Below are positions 1,872 to 56,437 of a stretch of DNA of 64,000 nucleotides, piece by piece. Each line of letters opens with the position of its first letter. Within the stretch, counting starts at the first letter, position 1. The position numbers were made by a program, and so were the translations under genes. Source of the DNA: Ignavibacteria bacterium (GTDB lineage Bacteria > Bacteroidota > Ignavibacteria > Kapaibacteriales > UBA4661). Location: NCBI GenBank assembly GCA_014654705.1, contig JACVZY010000093.1:62001-126000 (forward strand), written 5' to 3'. Under the pieces are notes generated by a model, which was not told the origin of the DNA, did no database searches, and saw only the letters and a program-made list of their open reading frames with translations.

Positions 1872-2591
1872 ATGCAACCCGTTCTCAATCTTGCCCCCGC
1901 CGACCACCATCGTATTCTGGCTGCTGACCCGCTTTCACTGCCTTTCGACCTGAACGAAATTTTCTTTTCCGTGCAGGGCGAAGGTACGCGGGCGGGTATT
2001 CCATGCGTGTTTGTGCGTCTGCATGGTTGCAAACTGCGCTGCTCCTACTGCGATACGAAATATGCAATAGACCGCAGAGCAGGCGGACTTTCGGTATCAG
2101 GCGCTGATATTGACCAGCGTGTGCGTGAGTATGGATGCCGCTTTGTGGAATTCACCGGCGGCGAGCCACTTGAGCAACCCAACGTCTTTGCGCTGATGAA
2201 ATACTATGCCGATGAAGGATTCACGGTTGCCGTCGAGACAGGCGGACATGTGGACGTAAGCCTTGTAGATGAGCGCGTCATTCGGATTATTGACATGAAA
2301 ACACCAAGTTCCAAGATGTTGCCGAAAAACAATTACCACAATCTTGAGATTCTGCGCCCACACGACGAGGTAAAATTTGTGATTGGGTCGCGGGAAGACT
2401 ACGAATGGTCGAAAAAAATCACACTTGAATACGATTTGCCTCATAAGACTGCAGCCGTGCTCTTTTCTCCGATTTTTGGAACGGTGGAGTACAAACAAAT
2501 TGTGGAATGGATACTGGAAGACCGCTTAGATGTGCGCTTCCAACTGCAAATGCACAAATTTATTTGGCATCCGGATATGCGGGGGGTCTAG
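1872..2591 (+). CDS. queE: 7-carboxy-7-deazaguanine synthase (radical SAM)
   Basis: Catalyses the radical-SAM ring contraction of 6-carboxytetrahydropterin to 7-carboxy-7-deazaguanine, on the way to queuosine in tRNA. The 239-residue protein has the FSVQGEGTRAG segment typical of QueE and a CX3CX2C cluster at Cys53, Cys57 and Cys60, which binds the 4Fe-4S cluster. FTGGEPLEQ is the SAM-contacting glycine motif. The start is 9 bases after the PNP stop, which suggests coupling. No other queuosine gene (queC, queD, queF) is visible nearby. Identification is strong from the motif spacing and the GGEP segment. Confidence 0.93.
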   Translation: MQPVLNLAPADHHRILAADPLSLPFDLNEIFFSVQGEGTRAGIPCVFVRLHGCKLRCSYCDTKYAIDRRAGGLSVSGADIDQRVREYGCRFVEFTGGEPLEQPNVFALMKYYADEGFTVAVETGGHVDVSLVDERVIRIIDMKTPSSKMLPKNNYHNLEILRPHDEVKFVIGSREDYEWSKKITLEYDLPHKTAAVLFSPIFGTVEYKQIVEWILEDRLDVRFQLQMHKFIWHPDMRGV

Positions 2592-2736
2592 TATACGTTT
2601 CCAAAGGTTATCACTGTTCCTAGCATCCAAACGACAATATGCCAGAAGGCGCGAAAAGCCAAATCTTAGAAAAATCCGAACTCAAACAGTCATCACAGAG
2701 AATAGCCAATACCCCCTATCGTTATTATTTTCTTCT

Positions 2737-5631
2737 ATGACCACCATTCCCGAATTTGTCCACTGGACGCGCAATCACATCAAAGGCGATGAAAAAGGCG
2801 AGGCGCAAATTTTTCTCGACCGCTTTTTTCGTGCGTTTGCGTGGGAAGGCACAAAGGAAGCAGGCGCGGAATACGAAGAGCGCATCCGCAAAAAAGAAGC
2901 CGGAAAGCGCACCACGACTTCCTTCGCCGATTTAGTCTGGCGACCCGATGCTGCCCGAAAACGCTCCGGCTTGCTCGTGGAAATGAAAAAACGCGGCGAA
3001 CATCTCCACAACCATTACGCCCAAGCCTTTGAATACTGGCTGCGCCTTGTGCCGCACCGCCCGCGCTACGTCATGCTCTGCAATTTCGATGAGTTTTGGA
3101 TTTACGATTTTGACCGCCAGATGGATGAGCCGATGGACAAACTCACGCTGGACACGCTCGCAGAACGCGCTTCGGCACTCGGCTTCATGCTCAAAGAGGA
3201 GAAAACGCCCCAATTCGGCAACAACCGCGAACAAGTCACCCGTGAGGCGGCGGAATCCGTCGCGGCGCTCTTCCGAAAGCTGGTGGAGTGGAAAGTTCCT
3301 CGCCCCGAAGCCCAACGTTTCACGCTGCAATGCGTCTTTGCGATGTTTGCTGAAGATTTGGGGCTGCTGCCAAACAGTATTTTTTCGGAAATCGTCGCCG
3401 AATCGGAGAACAATCCCGCACTTTCCTACGATGCCATTGGCGGTTTGTTCCGGCAGATGAACTCGCCCGAAGCCGCACGGGGCGGTCGCTTCCGCGAGGT
3501 GAAGTATTTCAACGGTGGTTTGTTTTCACGTATCGAACCCCTCGAACTCCAAAAAGCGCATCTGTTCCACCTGCAATTTGCCGCCCGCCAAGATTGGAGC
3601 AAGGTCAATCCCGCTATTTTCGGGACGCTCTTCGAGCAGAGCATGGATGCGGGCGAGCGCCACGCGCTGGGCGCACACTTCACCAGCGAGGCGGATATTC
3701 AAAAAGTAGTTTTGGCAACGATTGTTCGCCCTTGGCGTGAGCGCATCGAAGCCGCGAACACCTCCGCCGCACTCCGCGAGACCGCCAGCGAACTTGCCGC
3801 TTTCCGCGTTCTCGATCCCGCTTGCGGCAGCGGCAATTTTCTCTACGTCGCCTACCGCGAAATGAAGCGCTTGGAGCGGGAGCTTTGGGCAAAACACGCC
3901 GCAAATTTCTCGCTCGCGCACCGCGAAAGCATCGGTCAAACCTCGAAAGTCAGCGTCCGGCAGTTTTTCGGCATGGACAAAAGCGCCTTTGCTACCGAAC
4001 TTGCCAAAGTAACGCTGCTTTTGGCAAAAGAACTCGCCATCACCGAAGCCGAAACCCAGCGCCGAAGCGGTGAACAAGCCACCTTCGCCCCCGACGACGC
4101 ACTCCCATTGGAAAACCTTGACGATAACATTCGCTGTACCGATGCGCTCTTCACGTCCTGGGCAGAAGCGGATGCGATTATCGGCAATCCACCCTTTCAA
4201 GCAGCCTTTAGAATGGTAGAAGAGTTCGGTGCAGACTATGTTGCACGGTTGCGCGGCGCGTACCCCGACGTTCCCGGACGCGCCGATTATTGTATCTATT
4301 GGTTTCGTAAGGCGCATGAACACTTGCCCACAGGAGGTCGTGCGGGACTTATTGGAACAAATTCTATTCGCTCCAATTATTCCCGCGAAGGTGGTTTGGA
4401 CTACATCGTTGCCAACGACGGCGTGATTACCGATGCCGTCGGAACGCAGGTCTGGAGCGGTGATGCGGCGGTTCATGTCTCGGTGGTGAATTGGGTGAAA
4501 GCGCCGCAGGAAGCAGAACGCAAACAAGCAAAAACGCTCATGCTCCAAATGGGAGACCACGCCGACAGCCCTTGGAAAACCTACGCATTGGAACGCATTT
4601 CCGCTTCACTTTCGCCTGAAGTCGATGTGACAAGCGCCGTTGCATTGCAAGCCAATACCCGCATCCAGCGTTGTTTTCGCGGGCAGGAACCCGGACACGA
4701 TGGTTTTTTACTGAACATGAGCCAAGCACAGGAAATGATGAAAGACCCCAGAGCCGCGTCTGTGCTGCATCCGTACCTCATCGGCGATGAACTTGTTAGC
4801 GCCTTGTACTCGCAACCCTCACGCTTTGCCATCAATCTCAATCATTGCAAAGATGTACTGGAAGCAAGGGAATACGGAGAAGCATTCAAGCATTTGCAAG
4901 CAACAGTTTTTAAGGCGCTGGAAGCAAAAGCAAACGATGAACGTAGTAAAAGCGGTAAGGAAACAGGAACATATCAGCAACGGCTTCAACGCTGGTGGAA
5001 ATTTCGACGCTCAACACAAGAAACCATTGACGAAATTAGCAAGGCACCGCGCTACATCGTTTGCAGCCGTGTTACCAAGCGACCAATTTTTGAGTTTATT
5101 CATGCCAGTATTCATCCTGATTCTAGGCTTGCGGTCTTCGCCTTAGCTGATGATTACTCATTTGGCGTGATTCAGTCCATTGTTCATTGGAAATGGTTTA
5201 TTGAAAAATGCACAACACTTACGGCTCGATTTAACTACAACACCGAATCGGTGTGGGACACCTTCCCATGGGCGCAAGCCCCCACGCTGAAGCAAGTACA
5301 AGCCGTAGCATCGGCATCGGTGGAACTGCGGCGTTTGCGGCATGAACTCTGCGAGAAGCACGGTTGGAGCCTCAGGGAACTCTACCGCAGCCTGGAAACG
5401 CCCGGCAAACACCCCTTGCGCGATGCACAGGAAGCGCTGGATGCGTCTGTCCGTGCGGCGTACGGCATGAAAGCAAAGGATGATGTGTTGGAATTTTTAC
5501 TGGCGCTGAACCGCGATTGCGCTGCCCGCGAAGCACGTGGGGAAGCCATTACGCCGCCGGGACTGCCGGATGTGGTCAAGGATGCGCGGGCATTTGTGAG
5601 CGAGGATTGTGTGCGGATGCGGGCGGGGTAG
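2737..5631 (+). CDS. MmeI-type single-chain restriction-modification enzyme (type IIG/IIL-like)
   Basis: A 964-residue protein with the MmeI domain order: N-terminal nuclease, helical linker, N6-adenine methyltransferase, target-recognition domain and C-terminal helical tail. The nuclease site is visible as Asp65 (SFADLVWR) and Glu82-x-Lys84 (LLVEMKKRG), so the cleavage domain looks intact. The methyltransferase carries DPACGSGNFL at 360-369 and the catalytic NPPF at 484-487. The frame is open back to 2530, but I chose the ATG at 2737 because the MmeI-like homology begins there and the upstream residues look non-coding. No separate specificity or nuclease gene is adjacent, as expected for a self-contained enzyme. 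By eye its GC is higher than the genes after it, consistent with transfer. A DISARM or BREX methyltransferase is less likely because their partners are missing. Confidence 0.85.
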   Translation: MTTIPEFVHWTRNHIKGDEKGEAQIFLDRFFRAFAWEGTKEAGAEYEERIRKKEAGKRTTTSFADLVWRPDAARKRSGLLVEMKKRGEHLHNHYAQAFEYWLRLVPHRPRYVMLCNFDEFWIYDFDRQMDEPMDKLTLDTLAERASALGFMLKEEKTPQFGNNREQVTREAAESVAALFRKLVEWKVPRPEAQRFTLQCVFAMFAEDLGLLPNSIFSEIVAESENNPALSYDAIGGLFRQMNSPEAARGGRFREVKYFNGGLFSRIEPLELQKAHLFHLQFAARQDWSKVNPAIFGTLFEQSMDAGERHALGAHFTSEADIQKVVLATIVRPWRERIEAANTSAALRETASELAAFRVLDPACGSGNFLYVAYREMKRLERELWAKHAANFSLAHRESIGQTSKVSVRQFFGMDKSAFATELAKVTLLLAKELAITEAETQRRSGEQATFAPDDALPLENLDDNIRCTDALFTSWAEADAIIGNPPFQAAFRMVEEFGADYVARLRGAYPDVPGRADYCIYWFRKAHEHLPTGGRAGLIGTNSIRSNYSREGGLDYIVANDGVITDAVGTQVWSGDAAVHVSVVNWVKAPQEAERKQAKTLMLQMGDHADSPWKTYALERISASLSPEVDVTSAVALQANTRIQRCFRGQEPGHDGFLLNMSQAQEMMKDPRAASVLHPYLIGDELVSALYSQPSRFAINLNHCKDVLEAREYGEAFKHLQATVFKALEAKANDERSKSGKETGTYQQRLQRWWKFRRSTQETIDEISKAPRYIVCSRVTKRPIFEFIHASIHPDSRLAVFALADDYSFGVIQSIVHWKWFIEKCTTLTARFNYNTESVWDTFPWAQAPTLKQVQAVASASVELRRLRHELCEKHGWSLRELYRSLETPGKHPLRDAQEALDASVRAAYGMKAKDDVLEFLLALNRDCAAREARGEAITPPGLPDVVKDARAFVSEDCVRMRAG

Positions 5632-24203: not shown

Positions 24204-25802
24204 TTATTTTTCCAAAATGACTATTTCAGTTCGGCGGTTGAGTCGCCGCCCCACATCATTATCGTTACTCGCAATAGGACGCGATTTACCAAAGCCAAGT
24301 GTATGAATCCGATGCGCAGCCACGCGGCGCTGAATAAGATACGCCTTCACTGCCTCAGCACGCTGGAGCGATAGACGAAGGTTATATTCGGGGCTACCAA
24401 CGCCGTCGGTATGACCTTCCACGCGAATCACGACAGTTTTACGATTACTCATAAATTCCGCAATGCGTTCCAATTGTGGCTGAAACGTTACAACAGGAAC
24501 GGATTGATTCGTCGCAAAAAGCAGGTCTTCGATGATGAGCTTGCGCCCAATTTGCAGAATGGGAATGGTGCGCCGCACTAGTTCCAAATTACGTTCGTTG
24601 ACAATGGCAACATTGATAGAATCCGGTATTGCCGGCTCTTCGGAGCGATAGGTGATGGCATACATATTTGCCAGTGTGCTGGTGTAGGTGTCCAAGATTG
24701 TCCCAAAGGGCTTTGAGATGTCAAAGGTAGAGGCACGAGTAGCATCAGCCATTTTGCTGTATTGCTTAAAAACTGGCTTCGTGATAGGTACAATCTTCAT
24801 TTCCTTTGCTTTTGCCGAATCAATAATGTTCTGCGCGGTAAAATTGGTAACTCCGTCGCCATCTTCGCCTTTTTGGTGATATGGTGCGTCAGTGATAAGA
24901 AGAGCCATTCGACTGGCTGCCGGACGAAACTTGAGGTGCATCGCGGCATTCAGCGCATCAAGCGCATTTTCTTTCTCGTCTTTTCCGCCTTTCGCCTGTG
25001 TGCCGGAGAGCCACCAGAGAAATTCTTGCACATCGCTCGTGGGCTGGCGAATAACCTCGACAGAATCGGAGTACGTTACTAGCCCCAGACGAAAATCTAT
25101 ACCTTTGGCGAGAAGATTTTTCGTAAATTTGTCCACATTTGCTCGAACTGCGTTGATGTAGTCACCCATTGTGGCAGTTACGTCCAGCACAAAGACGAAA
25201 TCAATGGGGATGCGCTTATCGGACGAAATCTTTTTCACGGACACCACATCACGGCGTTTACCATTTTCGAGAACGGAAAGTTTTTGCTGCTCAAGCGAAG
25301 CGAAAGCGGCACTATCGGCAGTCGTCGCCTCCACGATAAGCCCGACTTCGGGGAAGCGCGTAATATCAACATTCTGGATGAAGAGCTTCAAACGGTCATC
25401 GGCAGACTGAATACTGGCACCTTGCTGTACGCCTTGCAAAATCCCGACACGCTTGATAGAATCTGCTGTTTCCATCTCGCGCCGAAACAAGTTCGGCGGC
25501 AAGCCCGGATTGGCGGTCGTGGTGCGCAAGGGAGCGTTTTTTGCTGCCGGAAGTGTGCTCGTGGTGGTCGAACGAGCCGTTTTACTCTTGAGCAGTGGTT
25601 TTATTGTTGCGGTGGTGCTTGGTTTTTTCTGGGTGCTGGGCAGCCCCCCGGCGGTTTTCGTCGTCTGCGCTTTAGCATGGGGAACATTTACGGACACCGC
25701 CGAAGCTAATGCAACGACGCACAACGCCACCATGCTGGCAATGCGGTATTGTGCCAGAAAGAAACGAGATATGATACTAATACGCTCTATCGAAATTTTC
25801 AT
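24204..25802 (-). CDS. OmpA-family protein with von Willebrand factor A domain
   Basis: A 532-residue exported protein. The start at 25802 was chosen because GGAGA lies 6 bases before it; ATGs or TTG further upstream are possible. After a signal-like segment (VALCVVALASAVSV) and a Ser/Thr/Lys-rich linker, a VWA domain carries a MIDAS-like DVTATMGDY, with Thr in place of Ser, followed by LITDAPYHQ. The C-terminus is an OmpA peptidoglycan-binding domain: VVIRVEGHTDGVGSPEYN, LSLQRAEAVKAYL, and RRLNRRTEI. It is the first gene of the operon that contains the T9SS cargo and Ig-like lipoprotein. It probably fixes that assembly to the cell wall. Confidence 0.88.
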   Translation of the reverse strand: MKISIERISIISRFFLAQYRIASMVALCVVALASAVSVNVPHAKAQTTKTAGGLPSTQKKPSTTATIKPLLKSKTARSTTTSTLPAAKNAPLRTTTANPGLPPNLFRREMETADSIKRVGILQGVQQGASIQSADDRLKLFIQNVDITRFPEVGLIVEATTADSAAFASLEQQKLSVLENGKRRDVVSVKKISSDKRIPIDFVFVLDVTATMGDYINAVRANVDKFTKNLLAKGIDFRLGLVTYSDSVEVIRQPTSDVQEFLWWLSGTQAKGGKDEKENALDALNAAMHLKFRPAASRMALLITDAPYHQKGEDGDGVTNFTAQNIIDSAKAKEMKIVPITKPVFKQYSKMADATRASTFDISKPFGTILDTYTSTLANMYAITYRSEEPAIPDSINVAIVNERNLELVRRTIPILQIGRKLIIEDLLFATNQSVPVVTFQPQLERIAEFMSNRKTVVIRVEGHTDGVGSPEYNLRLSLQRAEAVKAYLIQRRVAAHRIHTLGFGKSRPIASNDNDVGRRLNRRTEIVILEK

Positions 25803-25941: not shown

Positions 25942-27513
25942 TTAACGCGGAATCAAGATACGGAATACCGGGGAAATCATGAACAGACTTTGCTGCTCAT
26001 AAGGACGCAACTCGCGGAGAATATGCGCATATTTTGCTTCTATGTATAGCCAATTACCGAAGAGCGGTAAGTACCCGATACCCATAAAGGTCTGATTAGA
26101 ATACTGCAAAGTAAAACCAAACGGGTAGGTGGTTTCATTGCGATACTCGAACTTAATAAAAAGCCAGTCTAAGACACTTTGTGGAGTATAATTCACAAGT
26201 CCACGACCGCCTCTATTGGCAGCAGAAACATTATCTGAGGTTGCGAAGTAGGTAGGACCAAATTGACCACCCGTTTGCACCAATGCGGTCTCTCTGACCT
26301 CGGAGTAGTTAATACCTGCATCAATGCGGAAAATGTTATCCGGTGGATTCTCTGCACCTTCGACCTCTAACCACCAAGTGTAGAAAACACTCGCTTGAGC
26401 AACCGTGCGCAAGAGTGGCGTAATGGTTTGCACATCAACCCCACTTGAGTTACGATTTGTAACAAACTGTGCATTTTCCGAAAAGCGAGGATGGCTGGCA
26501 AGAAGCTGCAAACGCTCACTGCGCCCAACACCGTTACTTTCGTCAAAATTGACGCGAGAGAAGGTTAATGGTTCTGCAATCGGAACACCTTGATTGATAC
26601 TCTGGACAGGTATTTCGGCATTAATTCGTGCACCAAAAACGTTAGTTTTATTGTCTTCGCCTAGCGGCAGAACACCTTCAAAACTGACGGCAATTTTCGG
26701 ATCCGGTCCCATATTCAGTCTTCGCTTGCCCAAGAAGTCCGTTAGTCGAGGGTTTTGATTCCCAACGTCGTCGTTTAAGCGGTAAACAATACCACCGCTC
26801 AATTTCAAAAGGTTTGGAATAGCGCGACGGGTATTATTATCACCGTTGTCAATAAGTGAGCGTGTCGCCGTTATTTTGGCTTCGCCGGCATACCAGAAGT
26901 GGTAACCTGCATTGTCATTACCAATAGTATTATGAATCCACCAGTTGGTAGCACCTACTCGAAGCATTTGGTCAAATACAGAGAGGGAATAATACTGACG
27001 ACCACCGGTGGGCATACGGAAGTTGTTCTCTCCTACGCCGACTTTTTTCTCAATATCAGAAGTTACCTTACCGCCCACATTGGATACAGCCACAAAGTCA
27101 TGGCAGTATTTTTCTTCGCCATCGGGACCGACAGGTTCAGCAATAAGGTCGTTTACGCCTTGAAGCATATTATCCACGAGTTCTTTTTTTACGGCAATGG
27201 CACTACCACATTTGATTTGATAGATGTCGTATTTGCCATTTTTTTTAGGCTCGCCCCAAACGGAGATTTTTGCCAAATCCGGTCCGGGATCTTTACCCAC
27301 AGTCTTAAAATACTGCTGGATAATTTTTTGAACCTGCGCCTCGCACACCGTCCATCGGCTCAAGAAAGGTATTGCCCTATCATCTATGGTCGAAAAGGCT
27401 TTGGGAATACCACTCGAACCACCCGTCGTAGAGTCTGGAGCCTGCCCAAAGAGTGATGACGTACTCGACACAACAAGCACAAAGGCGCTGAGAACCAGTG
27501 AATATCGTTTCAT
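25942..27513 (-). CDS. Exported outer-membrane barrel protein with periplasmic N-domain (protein B)
   Basis: A 523-residue protein that I cannot place in a named family. The start at 27513 gives a signal peptide (SLVLSAFVLVVSSTSSLFGQ). Residues about 36-120 form a distinct N-domain with RAIPFLSRWTVCE and KKNGKYDIYQIKCG at 90-103. From about 150 the sequence is a series of amphipathic aromatic strands that looks like a large outer-membrane barrel, ending YAHILRELRPYEQQSLFMI then SPVFRILIPR. The N-domain matches the middle of protein D (54866-56437) closely: RAIPFLSRW with EALPHLTRW, and KKNGKYDIYQIKCG with KKNGKYDIYEIRCG. It is the third gene of a C-A-B unit. Confidence 0.6.
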   Translation of the reverse strand: MKRYSLVLSAFVLVVSSTSSLFGQAPDSTTGGSSGIPKAFSTIDDRAIPFLSRWTVCEAQVQKIIQQYFKTVGKDPGPDLAKISVWGEPKKNGKYDIYQIKCGSAIAVKKELVDNMLQGVNDLIAEPVGPDGEEKYCHDFVAVSNVGGKVTSDIEKKVGVGENNFRMPTGGRQYYSLSVFDQMLRVGATNWWIHNTIGNDNAGYHFWYAGEAKITATRSLIDNGDNNTRRAIPNLLKLSGGIVYRLNDDVGNQNPRLTDFLGKRRLNMGPDPKIAVSFEGVLPLGEDNKTNVFGARINAEIPVQSINQGVPIAEPLTFSRVNFDESNGVGRSERLQLLASHPRFSENAQFVTNRNSSGVDVQTITPLLRTVAQASVFYTWWLEVEGAENPPDNIFRIDAGINYSEVRETALVQTGGQFGPTYFATSDNVSAANRGGRGLVNYTPQSVLDWLFIKFEYRNETTYPFGFTLQYSNQTFMGIGYLPLFGNWLYIEAKYAHILRELRPYEQQSLFMISPVFRILIPR

Positions 27514-27768
27514 AGTGCTTACGCTGAAAATCGTAAAAGTAAAGATGTTCTGAACAGTTAGGGAAAAAGGGAGGTTTGGCAACCGCGTTCTTTTTCCTCT
27601 GACAATACGTTTCTATTGCTAAATCTAAAGTAAAAGTTTTTTGCTGCGACTGTATGTCGCTGGCATTGAGAAACTGATACTTTCTAAATAATTATCATTT
27701 TTTGTGCCATTTTGGGAGTACTCAACAATCCTTGAAAATTGCTAGCACACTCTCGCCCCAAAACCATA

Positions 27769-29508
27769 TTACCATCGGAAAATAAATCGCAGCGATGGCA
27801 CGGCAACCAAGGATGATTCCCAGGCATACGGTCCGCGAATAATTGGTACGAAAAGTCGTCCGTCCAAGCGGATTGCTGTGAGAAATCCTGTATCGCTGAT
27901 GGGAACTTGCAACCATGCCATACCGGAGCCTGCGCCGTCAAAATACTGAATATAAGCGCCAAACGGTACTGAGAGACCATACGACATATACTCAATGCGG
28001 AAGAAGGGTCCAAATTTAAGAGTTGAGTTTCTATCGGTTGCGGCAACAAATTCGTCGCCTAATTTACGCGGCACCCACTCTTCCATCTGATAACCGGCAG
28101 CACCGATTTTGAAGCGGATGTTATAGCCAAGATTGTCTTTGTCAGGGTCTTGAATACCAATGGAGAATGTATAATTCAAAAGCCCGTGCCAGCGCATCAA
28201 GAAACTTTTTCTGAGGCGCAAAGAGTCTGGAACACCAGTTTCTTCGGGGTTCACAAATGGACCCTTGTCATTATAGCGAATGTTGTTGCCGAGCATGACA
28301 GAGCCGGAAGCAGTAAAGACACCGCTACGGTCAATTAACTTAAAGGGAAAATCAAACGATCCATTCAAGCCGACACTGTTGTTAATCGTTGTAAATCGAC
28401 TTGGGAGCGTGAGTATTGGAAGAATATTCGGCGCCCAAAGCGACGTTGGCAGAATAACACCAAGTTTGTTTGCATCCCAGAGTGCATTGACTGCCACGCG
28501 CTCACTCCAGAGCGATGGATATCCAATGTCATCATTGCCGAACCGCATCTCTACGCCATACTGAGGAAGGTTGGTCGGCTCACCTTGCACACTGGCAGGG
28601 TCTTGATAGTGTCTCCAGCTAATAAGGTCGGCTGCACCAATCACGATTTCATCGCTAAATTGTTTGTCATTATCAACTGCCTTGTGCGGCTCACCCTCGG
28701 TAATCATTAAATACTCATTTACTCTGTCTTCGCCGATCATCTTCGTCACAACTTCTTTATTGATTTTCATCTGTACGCTTTGCGTTGGGCGAATAGCCTG
28801 AGTTTTTTCAGCAGGATTCTGCTTAATGTTGTTCTTAATATAATCATACATATTCTCGTAGCCGGTTCCTTCTATCGAACCTTTGACCGCTACCATTGCA
28901 CCGGTAGAATCATCTTTTTCAAACTCTTTGGTCTTAAACTGGCGCAAGTCATTTGCGTCCAGAACAGAAGCGGAAATAGGACCGTTGAGGGCGTTTTTTA
29001 GATAATCTGGGTCGGACGCCTGTGTTTGTGATGGTGATTGAATACCCATCACACCAAGAATAACCGGCTCACTACCTTCGGTAAATCGCTCACAAAGGAC
29101 ATAAACTTTTCCTATACGAACCAAACCTGCAAGGGCAGTATAGTAATTTTTCACCGCTTCGCAATCCGCGGGGCTTCCACCATCGTCTATCATTGCTTGC
29201 GGAACAGGTTGCTTTTTTAAAACACGCTTTTTAATATCATCGGTGTTTGTACACTCTTGCTCTGCGGTTTCAAGGGCAGCCGTGCGTGGTTGACCCGGCG
29301 TTATCACTTCGCTAAACCGCTTAACAGCACTAGCATCAGCTTCATAGAGTGAGATATTGGAGTACTTATAGTAGTCCATCTTTCTCAAGAATGCTTTGGT
29401 CAGTTCTTGCGCCTGCAATGTACTACCACAAAAGAAAAGTATTACCGTGCAGAGAGTAATGCACGAAGAGAACATTATACTATGACGGTTTGATACTAAA
29501 GTGCGCAT
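27769..29508 (-). CDS. Exported outer-membrane barrel protein with periplasmic N-domain (protein A)
   Basis: A 579-residue protein of unknown family. The ATG at 29508 is preceded by AGGA at a good distance and gives a signal peptide (CITLCTVILFFCGSTLQAQ). Residues about 35-180 form a periplasmic-looking domain beginning FLRKMDYYKYSNISLYEAD and including VILGVMGIQSPSQ and ASDPDYLKNAL. The remainder is predominantly beta, with strands such as GLLNYTFSIGIQDP and FGPFFRIEYMSYGL, and ends with SLRFIFRW, where a terminal aromatic residue is typical of BAM substrates. The N-domain matches the first part of protein D. It sits between C and B in the same direction. Confidence 0.6.
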   Translation of the reverse strand: MRTLVSNRHSIMFSSCITLCTVILFFCGSTLQAQELTKAFLRKMDYYKYSNISLYEADASAVKRFSEVITPGQPRTAALETAEQECTNTDDIKKRVLKKQPVPQAMIDDGGSPADCEAVKNYYTALAGLVRIGKVYVLCERFTEGSEPVILGVMGIQSPSQTQASDPDYLKNALNGPISASVLDANDLRQFKTKEFEKDDSTGAMVAVKGSIEGTGYENMYDYIKNNIKQNPAEKTQAIRPTQSVQMKINKEVVTKMIGEDRVNEYLMITEGEPHKAVDNDKQFSDEIVIGAADLISWRHYQDPASVQGEPTNLPQYGVEMRFGNDDIGYPSLWSERVAVNALWDANKLGVILPTSLWAPNILPILTLPSRFTTINNSVGLNGSFDFPFKLIDRSGVFTASGSVMLGNNIRYNDKGPFVNPEETGVPDSLRLRKSFLMRWHGLLNYTFSIGIQDPDKDNLGYNIRFKIGAAGYQMEEWVPRKLGDEFVAATDRNSTLKFGPFFRIEYMSYGLSVPFGAYIQYFDGAGSGMAWLQVPISDTGFLTAIRLDGRLFVPIIRGPYAWESSLVAVPSLRFIFRW

Positions 29509-29640
29509 GGGTAATCCTGCCGTAAAAAGTTCAGAGTTAAAAATTATGGCAAAAAACATTCAAAAATTCACCACGATGTCTTTCCTCAATTCAGCAACAT
29601 AAAATGGCTTCCGAGGAAAAATTCAATTGTCTGTTTGTTT

Positions 29641-32049
29641 TTATTGATATGGGATATTAACGGTAATTATGCATGGCGGGCTCGACGATGCTGCCGAAGT
29701 ACCTGCTTTTCGGTTTACAATTTTTGCGCCAACTTTTATCGCAATCGTGCCACGTAATATACGGCTTTCACCGGGTGGCTTCGGCGGAAGGTCTTTGACT
29801 TGAATTGTTACAGGGAATGCACCTGTGCTTGCGTCAAACGCACCGGAAACAACGCCGAAACTAGTAGCATTAGCAACCCATGTGGAGGTTGCATCAGGCT
29901 CATCACCATTATAAATTCTCAGCACTGTGTCTGGGCTATTATAGTCAATTTCAGCGTCGCCGGAAGGTTCAACATCGGAAAGTGTTGCCTTAACACTTTT
30001 ACTTGCATTTGGATCTTTGTTATCCGCATCTATAGGAACCTCAAAGTCAACACCAATTCCCTTAACGACGATTTGGAAATTATTGGGTTGTACGGGTTTT
30101 TTGCTAGATGTTTTCTTTGCTTTGACATCAGCGGAACCACCGGATTTAAGTTCTGTAATTGCACTAGAACATGAAATGTCTGGAGGTGATTGCTCAGGAG
30201 TCGTCTCTTTGGAAAAGAGTGGAACACGCTCACCGGTTGGTGGATATATCCAGACGATATCAGTTTTAACTTTTTTAGCTGCTGCCGGAATATTAGGACC
30301 AGTCCATCCTTCGGCATATGCATTATCTTGATTCTTCTTTTCATTGCCTAATTGATAGTCAATCTTAAATTGCGCCAATGGCAACTCAGCAGCGACAAGA
30401 AGTTTGCTGCGCAACTGCAAGCGCTTGCCATAGTAGAGCTTAAGACCTGCCAATGTCTTCATACTCTTCGGATCAAGGCTACTGGGAAGAACTGTCAAGT
30501 CAGTTGAGGCTGTATCAGATTTACCACCACCAGAGTATTCAAGTTTGATATTATACAATCCCGCTGGGATGGGACTTTCAAAAACCATGCGATACCGGCG
30601 TTTTTTATTATTTGCCTGGGGATCAACTGGTCCGCCTGCATTTGCCTCATCCAACTCTATTTTGTACTTACCAGCAAGCGATGGTGTGCCTTTAATATCT
30701 ACATTGGGGTTTCCGGGTTTGAAATACGATCCGGGGGTAAGAGCAAATGTAATAATAGTCTTTTGTAATTTATCAAAGGTGATAATCTTCGGCTCAAGTT
30801 CGCTGATACCGGGCGCTGGCTGCTGCTGCTCAGGCTTACGCACTTGCACATCAATATCCATCGTGCCGCTATTCTGATCAAGGAAGGATGAAAAACCGGG
30901 GGTCATCAACTTTACGATATAATCATACAGCGTAATCCTATTCAATACTTCCTCATCAGCTTTATTATTCTCACGACCTAGTTTAATAGCTGCATTAAAC
31001 TCCTCGACGGCTTTATATCGAGTGTTAAAATCACCCTCACCATCAAACCATTTATCACGCAGCTCAACTTTCCCATCAAGTTCCTTTTGCAGTTCCTGCA
31101 TAACAGAGCGAAGTGCTTTCACTTTCAACTTTACTACACCTACATTTACTTGATCTTCATCAGAGATATCCTTGACACCACCTTCAAAATCCACGCCAAG
31201 AATCTTATTGGTGCTTGAGAAAAAGCGAAGTTTATACCAACCATCTTTGCGCTCGTCACCCGGATCAAAATTGACCGTAAAGGTACGTGCAACCATCTTG
31301 CCATTGTTCACAAGATCTTTTTCAGATTTCAAGCTATCATAGAAAAACACAGTGTCTTTCATCTGACTAGCTCTCTCTACGGGCGTGCTATTCACGGCAA
31401 GATTGTAGAGAGGTTTGCGCCAGCCACCTTCAGATTTGTTATATTCATATGTTGCGGGCACGTCAAGTTTCAACTGGCGATTATCTATTAATGTCCAATT
31501 AAAATTGCGACCAACTTGCTGGTCAATATAGGTAGCAACATCACCTGTCTTGAATTCTCTGAGGCGCTTGCTATTGTACACGCTATCCGGCAGACGGGGT
31601 GCATTCTCTTGTGTTTCGCCTTTGGGCGTTTCAGTAAAGAAAAGTTGATAGGTCAATTCCTGTACATTTGCCAATTTGGTGAAGGTATAATCCTTAAGAC
31701 CTTCGGCGGCTTCGGCGGCAGCTTCAGCATTCTTTGCCTCGCTAATATCAGTTACACCAACCTTAACACTATACGTTTTCTGACGCTTAATACGTTGATC
31801 TTTAGGCAAAGACTCTACGGTTGCCTTATCTTGGATAATAATGAGGTCATTCGGAGCAACGTTCATATTGAAATTGCCCGAACCACTTTGTAGTTGTGAA
31901 AGGATATTCTGCACAATCTTCATAGACTCTTTCGTCTTTTTATGCAGACCTTCTTCAGCTTCATCGCGCTCGACGATGATGATGAGAAGTTCCAAGATAA
32001 CGGCAAGGTATAATACAAAATATACTTTGCCTGCACTGCCTTTCGACAT
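29641..32049 (-). CDS. Inner-membrane-anchored periplasmic protein, GldM/PorM-like in architecture (protein C)
   Basis: An 802-residue protein. The start at 32049 was chosen because one transmembrane segment (VYFVLYLAVILELLIIIV) follows directly; the open frame reaches to 32235 but the upstream residues look non-coding. A charged, helical stretch comes next (ERDEAEEGLHKKTKESMKIV), then mostly beta modules to the C-terminus. A single N-terminal anchor followed by a long periplasmic rod is the plan of GldM/PorM, the T9SS motor shaft, but I cannot show sequence homology. The last 150 residues (KKPVQPNNFQIVVKG, then VKDLPPKPPGESRILRG) match the end of protein D. It is the first gene of the C-A-B unit, with 132 bases to A. 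Confidence 0.5.
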   Translation of the reverse strand: MSKGSAGKVYFVLYLAVILELLIIIVERDEAEEGLHKKTKESMKIVQNILSQLQSGSGNFNMNVAPNDLIIIQDKATVESLPKDQRIKRQKTYSVKVGVTDISEAKNAEAAAEAAEGLKDYTFTKLANVQELTYQLFFTETPKGETQENAPRLPDSVYNSKRLREFKTGDVATYIDQQVGRNFNWTLIDNRQLKLDVPATYEYNKSEGGWRKPLYNLAVNSTPVERASQMKDTVFFYDSLKSEKDLVNNGKMVARTFTVNFDPGDERKDGWYKLRFFSSTNKILGVDFEGGVKDISDEDQVNVGVVKLKVKALRSVMQELQKELDGKVELRDKWFDGEGDFNTRYKAVEEFNAAIKLGRENNKADEEVLNRITLYDYIVKLMTPGFSSFLDQNSGTMDIDVQVRKPEQQQPAPGISELEPKIITFDKLQKTIITFALTPGSYFKPGNPNVDIKGTPSLAGKYKIELDEANAGGPVDPQANNKKRRYRMVFESPIPAGLYNIKLEYSGGGKSDTASTDLTVLPSSLDPKSMKTLAGLKLYYGKRLQLRSKLLVAAELPLAQFKIDYQLGNEKKNQDNAYAEGWTGPNIPAAAKKVKTDIVWIYPPTGERVPLFSKETTPEQSPPDISCSSAITELKSGGSADVKAKKTSSKKPVQPNNFQIVVKGIGVDFEVPIDADNKDPNASKSVKATLSDVEPSGDAEIDYNSPDTVLRIYNGDEPDATSTWVANATSFGVVSGAFDASTGAFPVTIQVKDLPPKPPGESRILRGTIAIKVGAKIVNRKAGTSAASSSPPCIITVNIPYQ

Positions 32050-32287: not shown

Positions 32288-33268
32288 TTACATATTTAAT
32301 AGCCATGCAAAAACAAGCGGTGCTACTATGGTCGCATCAGACTCAATAATAAACTTGGGTGTCGTTACGTCTAATTTCCCCCATGTAATTTTCTCGTTTG
32401 GGACTGCTCCGGAATACGAACCGTAACTCGTGGTCGAGTCCGATATTTGGCAAAAATAACTCCAGAAAGGAATATCAGTCATCTCCATATCTTGATAGAG
32501 CATTGGCACAACGCAGATTGGGAAGTCTCCAGCGATGCCACCACCGACTTGGAAGAATCCCACACCTTTACCTTTGGAGTTCTCAATATACCACTTCGAG
32601 AGCCACATCATATATTCAATGCCTGACTTCATGACCGATGGCTGCAATTCACCCTTAATGCAATATGATGCAAAAATGTTGCCCATAGTCGAATCTTCCC
32701 AACCGGGTACAATAATAGGCAGATTTTTCTCTGCCGCAGCAATCATCCATGAGTTTTTAGGGTCAATTTCGTAATACTGCTGCATATCGCCCGAGAGCAG
32801 CATTTTGTACATATATTCGTGGGGAAAATAACGCTCTCCACTATCTTGGGCAGTTTTCCATTGTTGGAAAATGTGCTTCTGGATGCGGCGGAATGCTTCC
32901 TCTTCTGGAATGCACGTATCGGTAACACGGTTAAAGCCATCTTCCAAAAGCGCCCATTCATCCTGCGGCGACAGATCGCGGTAATGCGGCACACGCTTAT
33001 AGTGCGTATGCGCCACAAGATTCATTATATCTTCCTCCAAATTTGCTCCGGTGCAAGAAATAATTTGCACCTTATCTTGCCGAATCATTTCTGCCAGCGT
33101 CTTTCCAAGCTCCGCAGTGCTCATCGCACCAGCTAGAGTTATCATCATTTTGCCGCCTTCAGCCAAATGTGTTTCATATCCCTTTGCGGCATCTACAAGA
33201 GCAGCAGCATTAAAGTGAAGGAAATTTTCTTCGATAAAGCGCGAAATCGTATTGCGTTGTATAGCCAT
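32288..33268 (-). CDS. Deoxyhypusine-synthase family protein
   Basis: A 326-residue NAD-dependent enzyme of the deoxyhypusine synthase fold. In archaea and eukaryotes this moves an aminobutyl group from spermidine to eIF5A; bacteria lack eIF5A. The active-site lysine is present in NEKITWGKLD, matching the catalytic WGK of known enzymes. Other marks are IISCTGANLEEDIMNL and VGFFQVGGGIAGDFPICVVP (NAD/spermidine loop). Bacterial relatives have been proposed to make homospermidine or other polyamines. The gene is alone, with 238 bases to gene C and 143 to the EEP gene. Family assignment is strong; the reaction is inferred. Confidence 0.88.
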   Translation of the reverse strand: MAIQRNTISRFIEENFLHFNAAALVDAAKGYETHLAEGGKMMITLAGAMSTAELGKTLAEMIRQDKVQIISCTGANLEEDIMNLVAHTHYKRVPHYRDLSPQDEWALLEDGFNRVTDTCIPEEEAFRRIQKHIFQQWKTAQDSGERYFPHEYMYKMLLSGDMQQYYEIDPKNSWMIAAAEKNLPIIVPGWEDSTMGNIFASYCIKGELQPSVMKSGIEYMMWLSKWYIENSKGKGVGFFQVGGGIAGDFPICVVPMLYQDMEMTDIPFWSYFCQISDSTTSYGSYSGAVPNEKITWGKLDVTTPKFIIESDATIVAPLVFAWLLNM

Positions 33269-54865: not shown

Positions 54866-56437
54866 TTATTTGTATTCTTGTTTGATTGGCACGACAATAC
54901 GCTTCGATTCACGCACGGTTGAACCATCAGCTTTTTTGCGGTTTATGACAGTTTTCAATTCTACGCTGCCTTGCAGGATGCGCTCTTCGTCCCTTATTTT
55001 GGGTGGAAGGTCTCGAACACCAATACTGACGATATATGAAGTGCCTTTGATTTCGCTTTTGTTTATCCCAAAGTTTAATACACCCGGCGACCAAGAAGCG
55101 GTCAAGTCTGGCTCACCGTTCTTCAAAAAAACTCGTATATCTGTATTATCGCTGTAATAGTCCATTGCTGTCGTTACGCTTGACACAATGTCTGCTTCTG
55201 CCCAAGATTCACCCTTGCCGAGAGGAGCAATCTTACTCAGGTCAATTTGTATCGTGAAATTGCTTGGCTGCACGGGTTTTCTGAATGTGCGCGGCGCGTT
55301 AGGGTTCGCTAGGAAATACTGATAATCTTTGTACGCTTGAATAGCATTGCGTCCCGTCAAAACATCAATGTATGCGCCTCGAATTGAGTATAAAGAAGAA
55401 ACGCCATCTGTCTCAAATTTTTTCGGATACATTGGCTCGAATTTTTTACTATTACTTGACGGTGTGGCGTATTCTTCAGGAATAAGCGGCAAAGGAAGTT
55501 CTTTCAATGCGACAGTCAACACGGCGTGGTCGTAATTCTGCACACACTCATCAGCCGGATTTCGCAAAACATCTAATATTCCGTTCGGAACATCATTGGC
55601 AATTTCCAATTTGTTCATATACTCCGCACCGCATCGTATTTCGTAGATGTCATATTTGCCATTCTTTTTAAGCACACCTGTCAGAATGAGCGTAGAATCA
55701 ACATTGGGCTTGCCATTTTGGCGAAAGAGCGTGTAAATGCTCTGAAGCAATTCACGTCCCTCTGTATTATCAGTACCAAGCCACTGCCAGCGCGTCAAAT
55801 GCGGCAAAGCCTCATCATCAATCACCGCAAATGCTGCTTTGTCAGGCGGAAATGCGGTAACAGATTTCGGTACAGGCAAGATTCCGCGAGGCTGCACAAC
55901 AAACACACCCCTTTTTGCCAAATCAGCAACTTCAAGTGAAAACTGTGGACGTAAACTTGCCGTAACATTAGCAAATACGCCTTGTTTGATGCTTGCTGCG
56001 CAATGTTCAAGCAATGTCTTTCCAAGCGGCTTTGCTATGAACTCTTTCGCACTTCCGCTTTGCGACGGAAAGCTGTGTAGTTGCTCAGATGTGAAAATAC
56101 TGCCGATGTCCACCCGCGCTAATTTCGACGACACAAAATCGGGGTCGTTTCGTTGCGCGGGGGAAGGTTTAGGCGTAGCAACTGCGCCGAGTATGCTTGA
56201 TGCTTCGCCACTGTTCGCTTTCGTTGTAACCACGAAGACCTGCCAAATATTTTCTTTTGGGACGAGTTCCAAAAAACGTTGTGCCGTAGCGCGGTCGGTC
56301 TCGAAAACGTGGACATTGGCAAATTTGTAGTAGTCAAGATTTGCGAGATAATCTTGCACTCCAAAACTTCTTTGAGCCTTAGCAGATGTAGTGCAGAGTA
56401 CAAGCGTAAGCAGCACCATAAGGGCTTTTTTCAACAT
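54866..56437 (-). CDS. Chimeric exported protein related to A, B and C (protein D)
   Basis: A 523-residue protein with a signal peptide (LMVLLTLVLCTTSAKAQ). Residues about 30-122 match the N-domain of protein A: LANLDYYKFANVHVFETD aligns with LRKMDYYKYSNISLYEAD. Residues about 204-292 match the N-domain of B: EALPHLTRW with RAIPFLSRW, and KKNGKYDIYEIRCG with KKNGKYDIYQIKCG. Residues about 386-523 match the end of C: RKPVQPSNFTIQI with KKPVQPNNFQIVV, and VRDLPPK...ERILQGSVELK with VKDLPPK...SRILRGTIAIK. It has no barrel and no anchor, so it should be soluble in the periplasm. The GIY-YIG gene follows on the same strand and HicB diverges from it. Confidence 0.7.
   Translation of the reverse strand: MLKKALMVLLTLVLCTTSAKAQRSFGVQDYLANLDYYKFANVHVFETDRATAQRFLELVPKENIWQVFVVTTKANSGEASSILGAVATPKPSPAQRNDPDFVSSKLARVDIGSIFTSEQLHSFPSQSGSAKEFIAKPLGKTLLEHCAASIKQGVFANVTASLRPQFSLEVADLAKRGVFVVQPRGILPVPKSVTAFPPDKAAFAVIDDEALPHLTRWQWLGTDNTEGRELLQSIYTLFRQNGKPNVDSTLILTGVLKKNGKYDIYEIRCGAEYMNKLEIANDVPNGILDVLRNPADECVQNYDHAVLTVALKELPLPLIPEEYATPSSNSKKFEPMYPKKFETDGVSSLYSIRGAYIDVLTGRNAIQAYKDYQYFLANPNAPRTFRKPVQPSNFTIQIDLSKIAPLGKGESWAEADIVSSVTTAMDYYSDNTDIRVFLKNGEPDLTASWSPGVLNFGINKSEIKGTSYIVSIGVRDLPPKIRDEERILQGSVELKTVINRKKADGSTVRESKRIVVPIKQEYK

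What the first reader, a model, noticed from the sequence alone, without database searches (positions are those of the whole stretch)
25942..32049. Three-gene envelope cluster C-A-B of unknown family
A single-anchor periplasmic rod (C) is followed on the same strand by two exported proteins with soluble N-domains and barrel-like C-regions (A and B). The plan resembles the GldM part of the T9SS motor plus outer-membrane partners, but the proteins are not recognisable as GldK, GldL or GldN. It lies directly upstream of the operon that encodes a T9SS-sorted protein, OmpA/VWA protein and lipoprotein. A lineage-specific T9SS component or a separate envelope machine is possible.
Basis: partly seen in the sequence, partly recalled or inferred. 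Interest (0 to 1): 0.7.

Follow-up and report, generated by a model that had tools for sequence, protein, structure and literature searches.

The report
Second GldLM-type envelope motor, outer half
A conserved four-gene block in a little-studied bacterial lineage appears to encode the rod, outer-membrane barrels and cell-wall anchor of a second proton-driven motor related to the one that powers type IX protein secretion.

Summary
In detail: C, A and B are real, on the minus strand, and match no Pfam or NCBIfam family credibly. The conserved unit is C-A-B plus the downstream OmpA/VWA gene (11 of 11 order-level loci examined). C and B each occur in 41 of 41 related genomes. C is a remote GldM relative, not canonical GldM: direct profile comparison fails, but a chain links GldM to M3, to its tandem paralogue, to C. 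In a sister family one operon reads L3-M3-L1-C-A-B-OmpA; L3 and L1 are GldL-like two-helix proteins with an invariant helix-2 glutamate (27 of 27). L1 sits directly before a PorU-like C25-sortase gene in 20 of 35 order genomes. SprA is in 41 of 41; GldN and PorP in 0 of 41, canonical GldM in 0 of 12 and GldL in 0 of 10 order genomes sampled. A window protein (54866-56437) fuses pieces of A, B and C, suggesting the three work together. Best reading: C-A-B-OmpA is the outer half of a second, lineage-specific GldLM-type motor tied to type IX secretion. Homology and linkage are shown; motor action and secretion role are inferred. 42 of 79 SprA-positive class genomes lack a detected GldL-like protein.

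The parts
29641..32049 (-). C: 802 aa, single N-terminal membrane helix (YFVLYLAVILELLIIIVERDE), long periplasmic rod with Ig-like C-terminal half; remote GldM-type axle/rod
   Evidence: 41 of 41 relatives; E18, E25, R26 and D27 (counted from Lys3) identical in 17 of 17 rows; model, mean pLDDT 56.9; homology chain
27769..29508 (-). A: exported protein, soluble N-domain (about residues 40-250) plus C-terminal region homologous to the barrel of B
   Evidence: 11 of 11 order-level loci
25942..27513 (-). B: exported protein, soluble N-domain (about residues 40-147) plus C-terminal outer-membrane barrel
   Evidence: 41 of 41 relatives; low-confidence barrel model, PDB matches of the OmpG/FadL class
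24204..25802 (-). OmpA/VWA protein: VWA domain plus OmpA domain; fourth gene of the conserved unit
   Evidence: Pfam OmpA 1.3e-19 and VWA_2 6.3e-12; 11 of 11 order-level loci
54866..56437 (-). Mosaic protein, 523 aa: pieces of A N-domain, B N-domain and C C-terminal domain in one chain; no barrel match and no C rod or membrane-helix match

Best explanation
C-A-B-OmpA/VWA is the axle and outer-membrane half of a second, lineage-specific GldLM-type proton motor. C is the GldM-type dimeric axle and rod; its stator is most likely the unlinked GldL-like protein L1 (in this genome on G000:C118), whose helix-2 glutamate would carry protons. Movement of C would be passed by its Ig-like tip to the periplasmic N-domains of the outer-membrane proteins A and B, with the OmpA/VWA protein anchoring the assembly to peptidoglycan. 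It most likely serves the type IX secretion machine (or surface motion coupled to it), alongside a first motor pair, L3-M3, which is the closer relative of canonical GldL-GldM. Shown: homology, gene linkage, domain fusions. Inferred: stoichiometry, proton flow, movement, contacts, the L1-C pairing in the order, and the secretion role.
For: Homology chain: GldM to M3, prob 69.4, E 4e-5, 182 collinear columns with 25 sequences (26.7 with 21), first and second of 93 profiles; M3 to f40 M, prob 97.9 over 380 columns; f40 M to f40 C in the same operon, blastp 6e-18 to 3e-26 in 8 of 8 loci; f40 C to C, prob 98.3, 67 N-terminal columns. GldL to L3: prob 93.5-95.4, top of 93. Helix-2 glutamate in 27 of 27; GldL E49 is needed for secretion in F. 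johnsoniae (PMC8986121, passages). Sister family f40: L3-M3-L1-C-A-B-OmpA complete in 4 of 9 genomes, the other five cut by contigs. L-C-A-B operons in f13. A C paralogue in this genome sits directly behind a GldL-like gene. L1 directly before a PorU-like gene in 20 of 35 order genomes. SprA 41 of 41; GldN and PorP 0 of 41 over cut-off. Mosaic proteins join A-N, B-N and C-tip modules.
Against: Direct C-GldM profile comparison fails (prob 1-3), as does L1-GldL (5.2). C itself is not adjacent to a GldL-like gene in the order (coordinates; nearest about 20 kb, in family f6), so L1 as partner rests on outgroup operons and the L tree. The f40 C to C link covers only the N-terminal 67 columns. 42 of 79 SprA-positive class genomes had no GldL-like match. 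L1 is not beside a PorU-like gene in 15 of 35 genomes, including all nine of family f1 with a retrieved L1, this one among them. The one PorU-like protein scanned scores below the PorU model's cut-off (205.5 of 420 bits). Structure models are weak.
Confidence: 0.6

Rival explanations
1. It is a GldLM-type motor, but for a separate envelope task (surface adhesin movement, gliding or another transport), not for type IX secretion, which L3-M3 alone would drive.
For: Two GldL-like types coexist in the order, f40 and f16; L3-M3 is the closer GldLM relative; 42 of 79 SprA-positive class genomes have no GldL-like match at all.
Against: L1 beside a PorU-like gene in 20 of 35 order genomes; one operon with L3-M3 in f40; C in 41 of 41 order genomes, all with SprA.
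Confidence: 0.23
2. A passive scaffold: C tethers the inner membrane to outer-membrane proteins A and B and the OmpA/VWA anchor, without energy transduction.
For: OmpA and VWA domains, Ig-like rod and barrel would suit a tether.
Against: C homologues lie directly behind GldL-like genes with an invariant helix-2 glutamate.
Confidence: 0.08
3. C is simply the order's diverged canonical GldM, with A, B and OmpA/VWA standing for GldN, PorP and PorE; M3 is the extra protein.
For: Canonical GldM, GldN and PorP were not recognised in the order genomes tested; the layout is analogous.
Against: M3 and L3 match GldM and GldL better than C and L1 do; the L tree puts the C-associated L genes in a clade apart from GldL and most L3 (support 0.90).
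Confidence: 0.08

Closest known systems
[quoted passage not shown]
   Same: GldL-like hairpin with a conserved helix-2 glutamate; single-anchor partner with a long periplasmic part; remote homology by a profile chain; L1 beside a PorU-like gene in 20 of 35 order genomes
   Different: C fails direct GldM tests; C is 802 aa in this genome against about 515 aa for GldM; L1 is larger with an extra N-terminal region; partners are two exported barrel-type proteins and an OmpA/VWA protein; a second, closer GldLM-like pair exists in the same genomes
PorE (OmpA-domain, peptidoglycan-binding T9SS lipoprotein)
   Same: C-terminal OmpA domain in a protein linked to the motor genes
   Different: Has a VWA domain; the PorE model matches only through the OmpA region, 51.8 of 600 bits
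PorP/SprF barrel proteins
   Same: Outer-membrane barrel beside a GldM-type gene set (PorP's place in the T9SS is recalled)
   Different: A and B do not match the PorP/SprF model and no genome of 41 has a match over cut-off; A and B carry soluble N-domains
FadL/OmpG-class outer-membrane barrels, including a chain of the T9SS translocon (8gl6_F, 6h3i_F)
   Same: Barrel fold of the low-confidence B model (Z 14.2 for OmpG, 10.8 and 10.3 for the two translocon chains)
   Different: Fold class only, at single-digit to 12% identity; no family relation shown

Membership tests
GldM/PorM | Match to the GldM family model (TIGR03517) or GldM Pfam domains | tested here: not met
   C has 0 families in Pfam and NCBIfam; TIGR03517 matched none of the 12 order genomes in the sample; PF12081 gave one match below cut-off elsewhere in this genome (E 0.077)
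GldM/PorM | Direct profile-profile similarity of C to GldM | tested here: not met
   hhalign prob 1.3-3.4
GldM/PorM | Single N-terminal membrane helix followed by a long beta-rich periplasmic part | tested here: met
   One hydrophobic window starting at residue 4; Ig-like strands in 410-800 of the model; residues 1-128 modelled below pLDDT 50
GldM-like superfamily (wider) | Homology to GldM through intermediates | tested here: met
   GldM-M3-f40 M-f40 C-C chain; weakest link GldM-M3, prob 69.4 with 25 sequences and 26.7 with 21
GldLM operon | gldM-like gene directly behind a gldL-like gene | tested here: inconclusive
   Met for C homologues in f40, f13 and other class families and for the C paralogue of this genome; not met for C itself in the order (coordinates)
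GldL (for partner L1) | Two-helix hairpin with conserved glutamate in helix 2 | tested here: met
   27 of 27 aligned GldL-like proteins, 6 of them L1
GldL (for partner L1) | Direct profile similarity of L1 to canonical GldL | tested here: not met
   prob 5.2 for L1; 93.5-95.4 for L3
PorP/SprF (for A, B) | Match to TIGR03519 | tested here: not met
   A and B unmatched; 0 of 41 genomes over cut-off, 13 with weak matches
GldN/PorN | Match to TIGR03523 anywhere in the genomes | tested here: not met
   0 of 41 over cut-off; one weak match, E 0.049
PorE (for OmpA/VWA) | Match to NF052230 over its cut-off | tested here: not met
   51.8 bits against 600
GldK/PorK | A GldK-type lipoprotein in the genomes | not tested
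   No GldK search was run
Proton-driven 5:2 motor | Pentamer-dimer assembly and proton flow | not testable with these tools
   No complex prediction or experiment available

The most novel reading that the evidence does not exclude
In this lineage the type IX machine runs on two parallel, tandem-duplicated GldLM-type motors: one close to GldLM (L3-M3), and one whose rod C engages outer-membrane proteins A and B directly through their periplasmic domains, in place of a GldN ring and PorP, which were not recognised here. One family also makes shuffled periplasmic adaptor proteins built from the three contact domains.
Probability: 0.33. Interest if true: 0.85.

Novelty: new variant of a known kind. 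Interest (0 to 1): 0.68.

Why it matters
How inner-membrane motor movement reaches the outer-membrane SprA translocon is not settled. A lineage with SprA in every genome tested, no recognised GldN or PorP and no recognised canonical GldL or GldM in the sampled genomes, but with two related motor pairs, one of them encoded with two barrel-type proteins and an OmpA/VWA protein, offers a natural comparison of which motor parts are essential and how the rod meets the outer membrane. The mosaic proteins make one proposed contact (C tip with A and B N-domains) directly testable.

Tried and rejected
Direct family and profile tests of C against GldM failed and are reported as failures. PDB sequence-profile searches with C, A and B gave nothing credible (leghemoglobin E 0.028, listerin E 1.4, none). 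The fold searches gave generic Ig chains for C and generic barrels for B; no GldM or PorM entry is among the 50 rows shown for C, which decides nothing. Promoter- and terminator-like sites were near the shuffle expectation: 29 against a mean of 21.6 (sd 5.0) and 19 against 19.3. A canonical GldL profile over 80 class genomes gave 4 weak matches, all outside the hairpin. The decoy test is modest: 40 clustered families, 18 of which match the profiles of this study, the same 40 reversed, and 13 named sets. GldK was not searched. Literature: searches returned 0, 1, 0, 8, 5 and 0 papers; by title and start of abstract none is about a T9SS motor in Kapabacteria/Kapaibacteria or Ignavibacteria, and I opened none of them. 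Searches returned general T9SS papers; of all papers I saw passages of PMC9389320, PMC8754138 and PMC8986121, and listings only of the rest.
Full report
WHAT IS THERE. The finding's coordinates are right. On the minus strand, C (29641-32049, 802 aa), A (27769-29508) and B (25942-27513) follow each other and are followed by an OmpA/VWA gene (24204-25802). C and A match nothing in Pfam or NCBIfam; B has two chance-level NCBIfam matches, E 0.026 and 0.16. The window lies in G000:C93. The closest named relatives are metagenome-assembled genomes titled Candidatus Kapaibacterium or Ignavibacteria bacterium.

THE CONSERVED UNIT. C matched in 41 of 41 related genomes and B in 41 of 41. Reading the coordinates of those two calls, C and B lie on the same contig and strand a few kilobases apart in 40 of 41. 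The exception, G009, has C at a contig end; G008 has C in two pieces; G030 has C split over two contigs, one part beside B. Open reading frames show C-A-B-OmpA/VWA in 11 of 11 loci taken from 11 of the 31 order genomes outside the family, and in 6 of 7 close-relative loci, the seventh being cut off inside A. The sorted protein and the lipoprotein downstream gave no match in the 11 order-level loci (19-20 kb each); the sorted protein matched in 5 of the 6 close-relative loci with a complete block. Its sorting domain is below both curated cut-offs: 24.9 of 27 bits in Pfam and 19.3 of 23 in NCBIfam. The conserved unit is therefore four genes. A and B are homologous to each other in their C-terminal regions (hhalign prob 97.4, 182 columns).

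GLDL-LIKE PARTNERS. In other families of the same class a shorter C homologue (186-428 aa in seven loci) lies directly behind a two-helix protein. A profile of that protein finds relatives in 41 of 41 order genomes. By length and neighbours I sorted them into L1 (about 440-560 aa), L2 (about 325-345 aa), L3 (about 240-310 aa, directly before a 466-540 aa single-anchor protein, M3, in 21 of 23 L3 loci) and L4 (this family only, directly before a C paralogue, for example on G000:C14). All 27 members aligned keep a glutamate in helix 2. In F. johnsoniae the conserved GldL helix-2 glutamate E49 is needed for secretion (PMC8986121, passages). In a tree of hairpins, L1, L2, L4 and the C-associated class proteins form a clade of 64 with support 0.90 that excludes canonical GldL and L3. 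The grouping of 24 L3 proteins with GldL is weak (0.34), and one order L3 and the eight f40 L3 proteins fall on the other side without support.

THE SISTER-FAMILY OPERON. In family f40 of the same class the genes run L3-M3-L1-C-A-B-OmpA/VWA. The complete run is on one contig in 4 of 9 genomes (G200, G207, G193, G186); the other five (G180, G224, G229, G214, G220) show the parts their contigs allow. In f40 both the A and the B profile match both barrel genes, so A and B there are named by position; single f40 M proteins match the M3 profile only weakly or, in L234 and L248, not at E 0.001, and are named by position, size and the family profile. In f13 two L-C-A-B operons occur in one genome (G092: L120, L246). 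In f16 (G160) C-A-B-OmpA, L1 and L3-M3 lie apart, as in the order. In five class loci the genes behind the short C homologue include pairs whose profiles compare with A at prob 84.6 over 345 columns and with B at only 20.8.

HOMOLOGY CHAIN. Direct comparison of C with canonical GldM fails (prob 1-3). The chain is: canonical GldM to M3, prob 26.7 with 21 sequences and 69.4 (E 4e-5, 182 collinear columns) with 25, second and first of 93 profiles that included unrelated families and reversed controls; M3 to f40 M, prob 97.9 over 380 columns; f40 M to f40 C in the same operon, blastp 6e-18 to 3e-26 in 8 of 8 loci; f40 C to C, prob 98.3 over 67 N-terminal columns. A mixed f40 M and C family matches C at prob 97.8 over another 123 columns. 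Canonical GldL to L3: prob 93.5-95.4, the top of 93; to L1 only 5.2. C thus belongs to a wider GldM-like superfamily by transitive evidence, not to GldM itself.

TIE TO TYPE IX SECRETION. L1 lies directly before a PorU-like gene in 20 of 35 order genomes with a retrieved L1 locus. The one such protein scanned in full has the C25 peptidase domain far over cut-off (168.5 of 23 bits) and matches the PorU sortase model at E 1e-60 but below its cut-off (205.5 of 420); the others were recognised with a profile of four such proteins. The gene was not found in 15 genomes: all nine of family f1 with a retrieved L1, including this one (G003 is cut at a contig end), and six others; most loci had only 1.5 kb of flank. 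SprA is over its cut-off in 41 of 41 order genomes and 79 of 80 class genomes. GldN is over its cut-off in 0 of 41, PorP/SprF in 0 of 41, GldM TIGR03517 in none of the 12 order genomes sampled, and a canonical GldL profile matched no hairpin in 80 class genomes, 10 of them of the order. Against a simple reading, the GldL-like profile matched only 37 of 80 class genomes, so 42 of 79 SprA-positive genomes have no detected member. C itself is not adjacent to a GldL-like gene in the order; the nearest L1 is about 20 kb away, in family f6 (coordinates).

MOSAIC PROTEINS. Window ORF 54866-56437 carries pieces of A's N-domain (28%, E 2e-6; 24%, E 1e-4), B's N-domain (30%, E 5e-13) and C's C-terminal domain (34%, E 5e-13) in one chain. 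In loci fetched because they matched C or B, 29 paralogous ORFs carry such modules; 17 carry modules from at least two of the three proteins and 12 from one only, and the 17 come from 7 of the 10 genomes of this family. The sample is biased by that choice. Fusion of these three parts suggests that the C tip and the A and B N-domains belong to one assembly; physical contact is an inference.

STRUCTURE. C (8-row alignment): mean pLDDT 56.9, pTM 0.37, Ig-like domains in 410-800; PDB matches are generic Ig or cadherin chains, best Z 9.2. B (7 rows): mean pLDDT 47.9; the barrel matches OmpG (4ctd_B, Z 14.2, rmsd 3.8, 200 aligned), TodX, CymD and FadL (Z about 10-12) and a chain of the T9SS translocon (8gl6_F, Z 10.8, rmsd 5.4, 231 aligned; that it is PorV is recalled). 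These support an outer-membrane barrel and nothing finer.

MECHANISM. Shown: conservation, linkage, homology chain, invariant glutamate, fusions. Inferred: C as dimeric axle inside an L1 pentamer, proton-driven movement of C, transfer from the C tip to the A and B periplasmic domains, peptidoglycan anchoring by OmpA/VWA, and service to type IX secretion. Published models for GldLM describe a pentamer around a dimer with movement passed to the periplasmic part (PMC9389320 and PMC8986121, passages).

NOVELTY. A new variant of a known kind: a second, lineage-specific GldLM-type motor module with its own outer-membrane partners. Six searches of an open-licence library listed no paper whose title or abstract start concerns it; papers outside that library were not searched.

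Noticed in passing
window 54866-56437: Mosaic protein built from A N-domain, B N-domain and C C-terminal domain pieces; 17 such mosaics seen in 7 of 10 genomes of the family, in loci chosen by C or B matches.
   Followed up: partly
L039 8824-12704 (G000:C14): A C paralogue (782 aa ORF) lies directly behind a GldL-like gene (474 aa), with no A, B or OmpA/VWA match in that locus; the same pair occurs in L053 and L054.
   Followed up: partly
L154 9308-11860 (G000:C51): L3-M3, the pair closest to canonical GldL-GldM in this genome.
   Followed up: yes
class sample: 42 of 79 SprA-positive genomes have no detected GldL-like protein; what drives their type IX system is unexplained.
   Followed up: no
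L124-L163 and others, listed; f6 genomes G014, G023, G030, G036: In family f6 the L1 gene with its PorU-like neighbour lies about 20 kb from the C-A-B block on the same contig.
   Followed up: no
L116, L118, L119: A multi-helix membrane protein (DUF2254 in Pfam, tested for the L116 copy only) lies directly upstream of the GldL-like gene in these class genomes.
   Followed up: no
window 32288-33268: Deoxyhypusine-synthase family gene (Pfam DS) upstream of C; among the seven close-relative loci it matched only in L032.
   Followed up: no
window 2530-5631: MmeI-type restriction-modification enzyme (Pfam MmeI domains).
   Followed up: no
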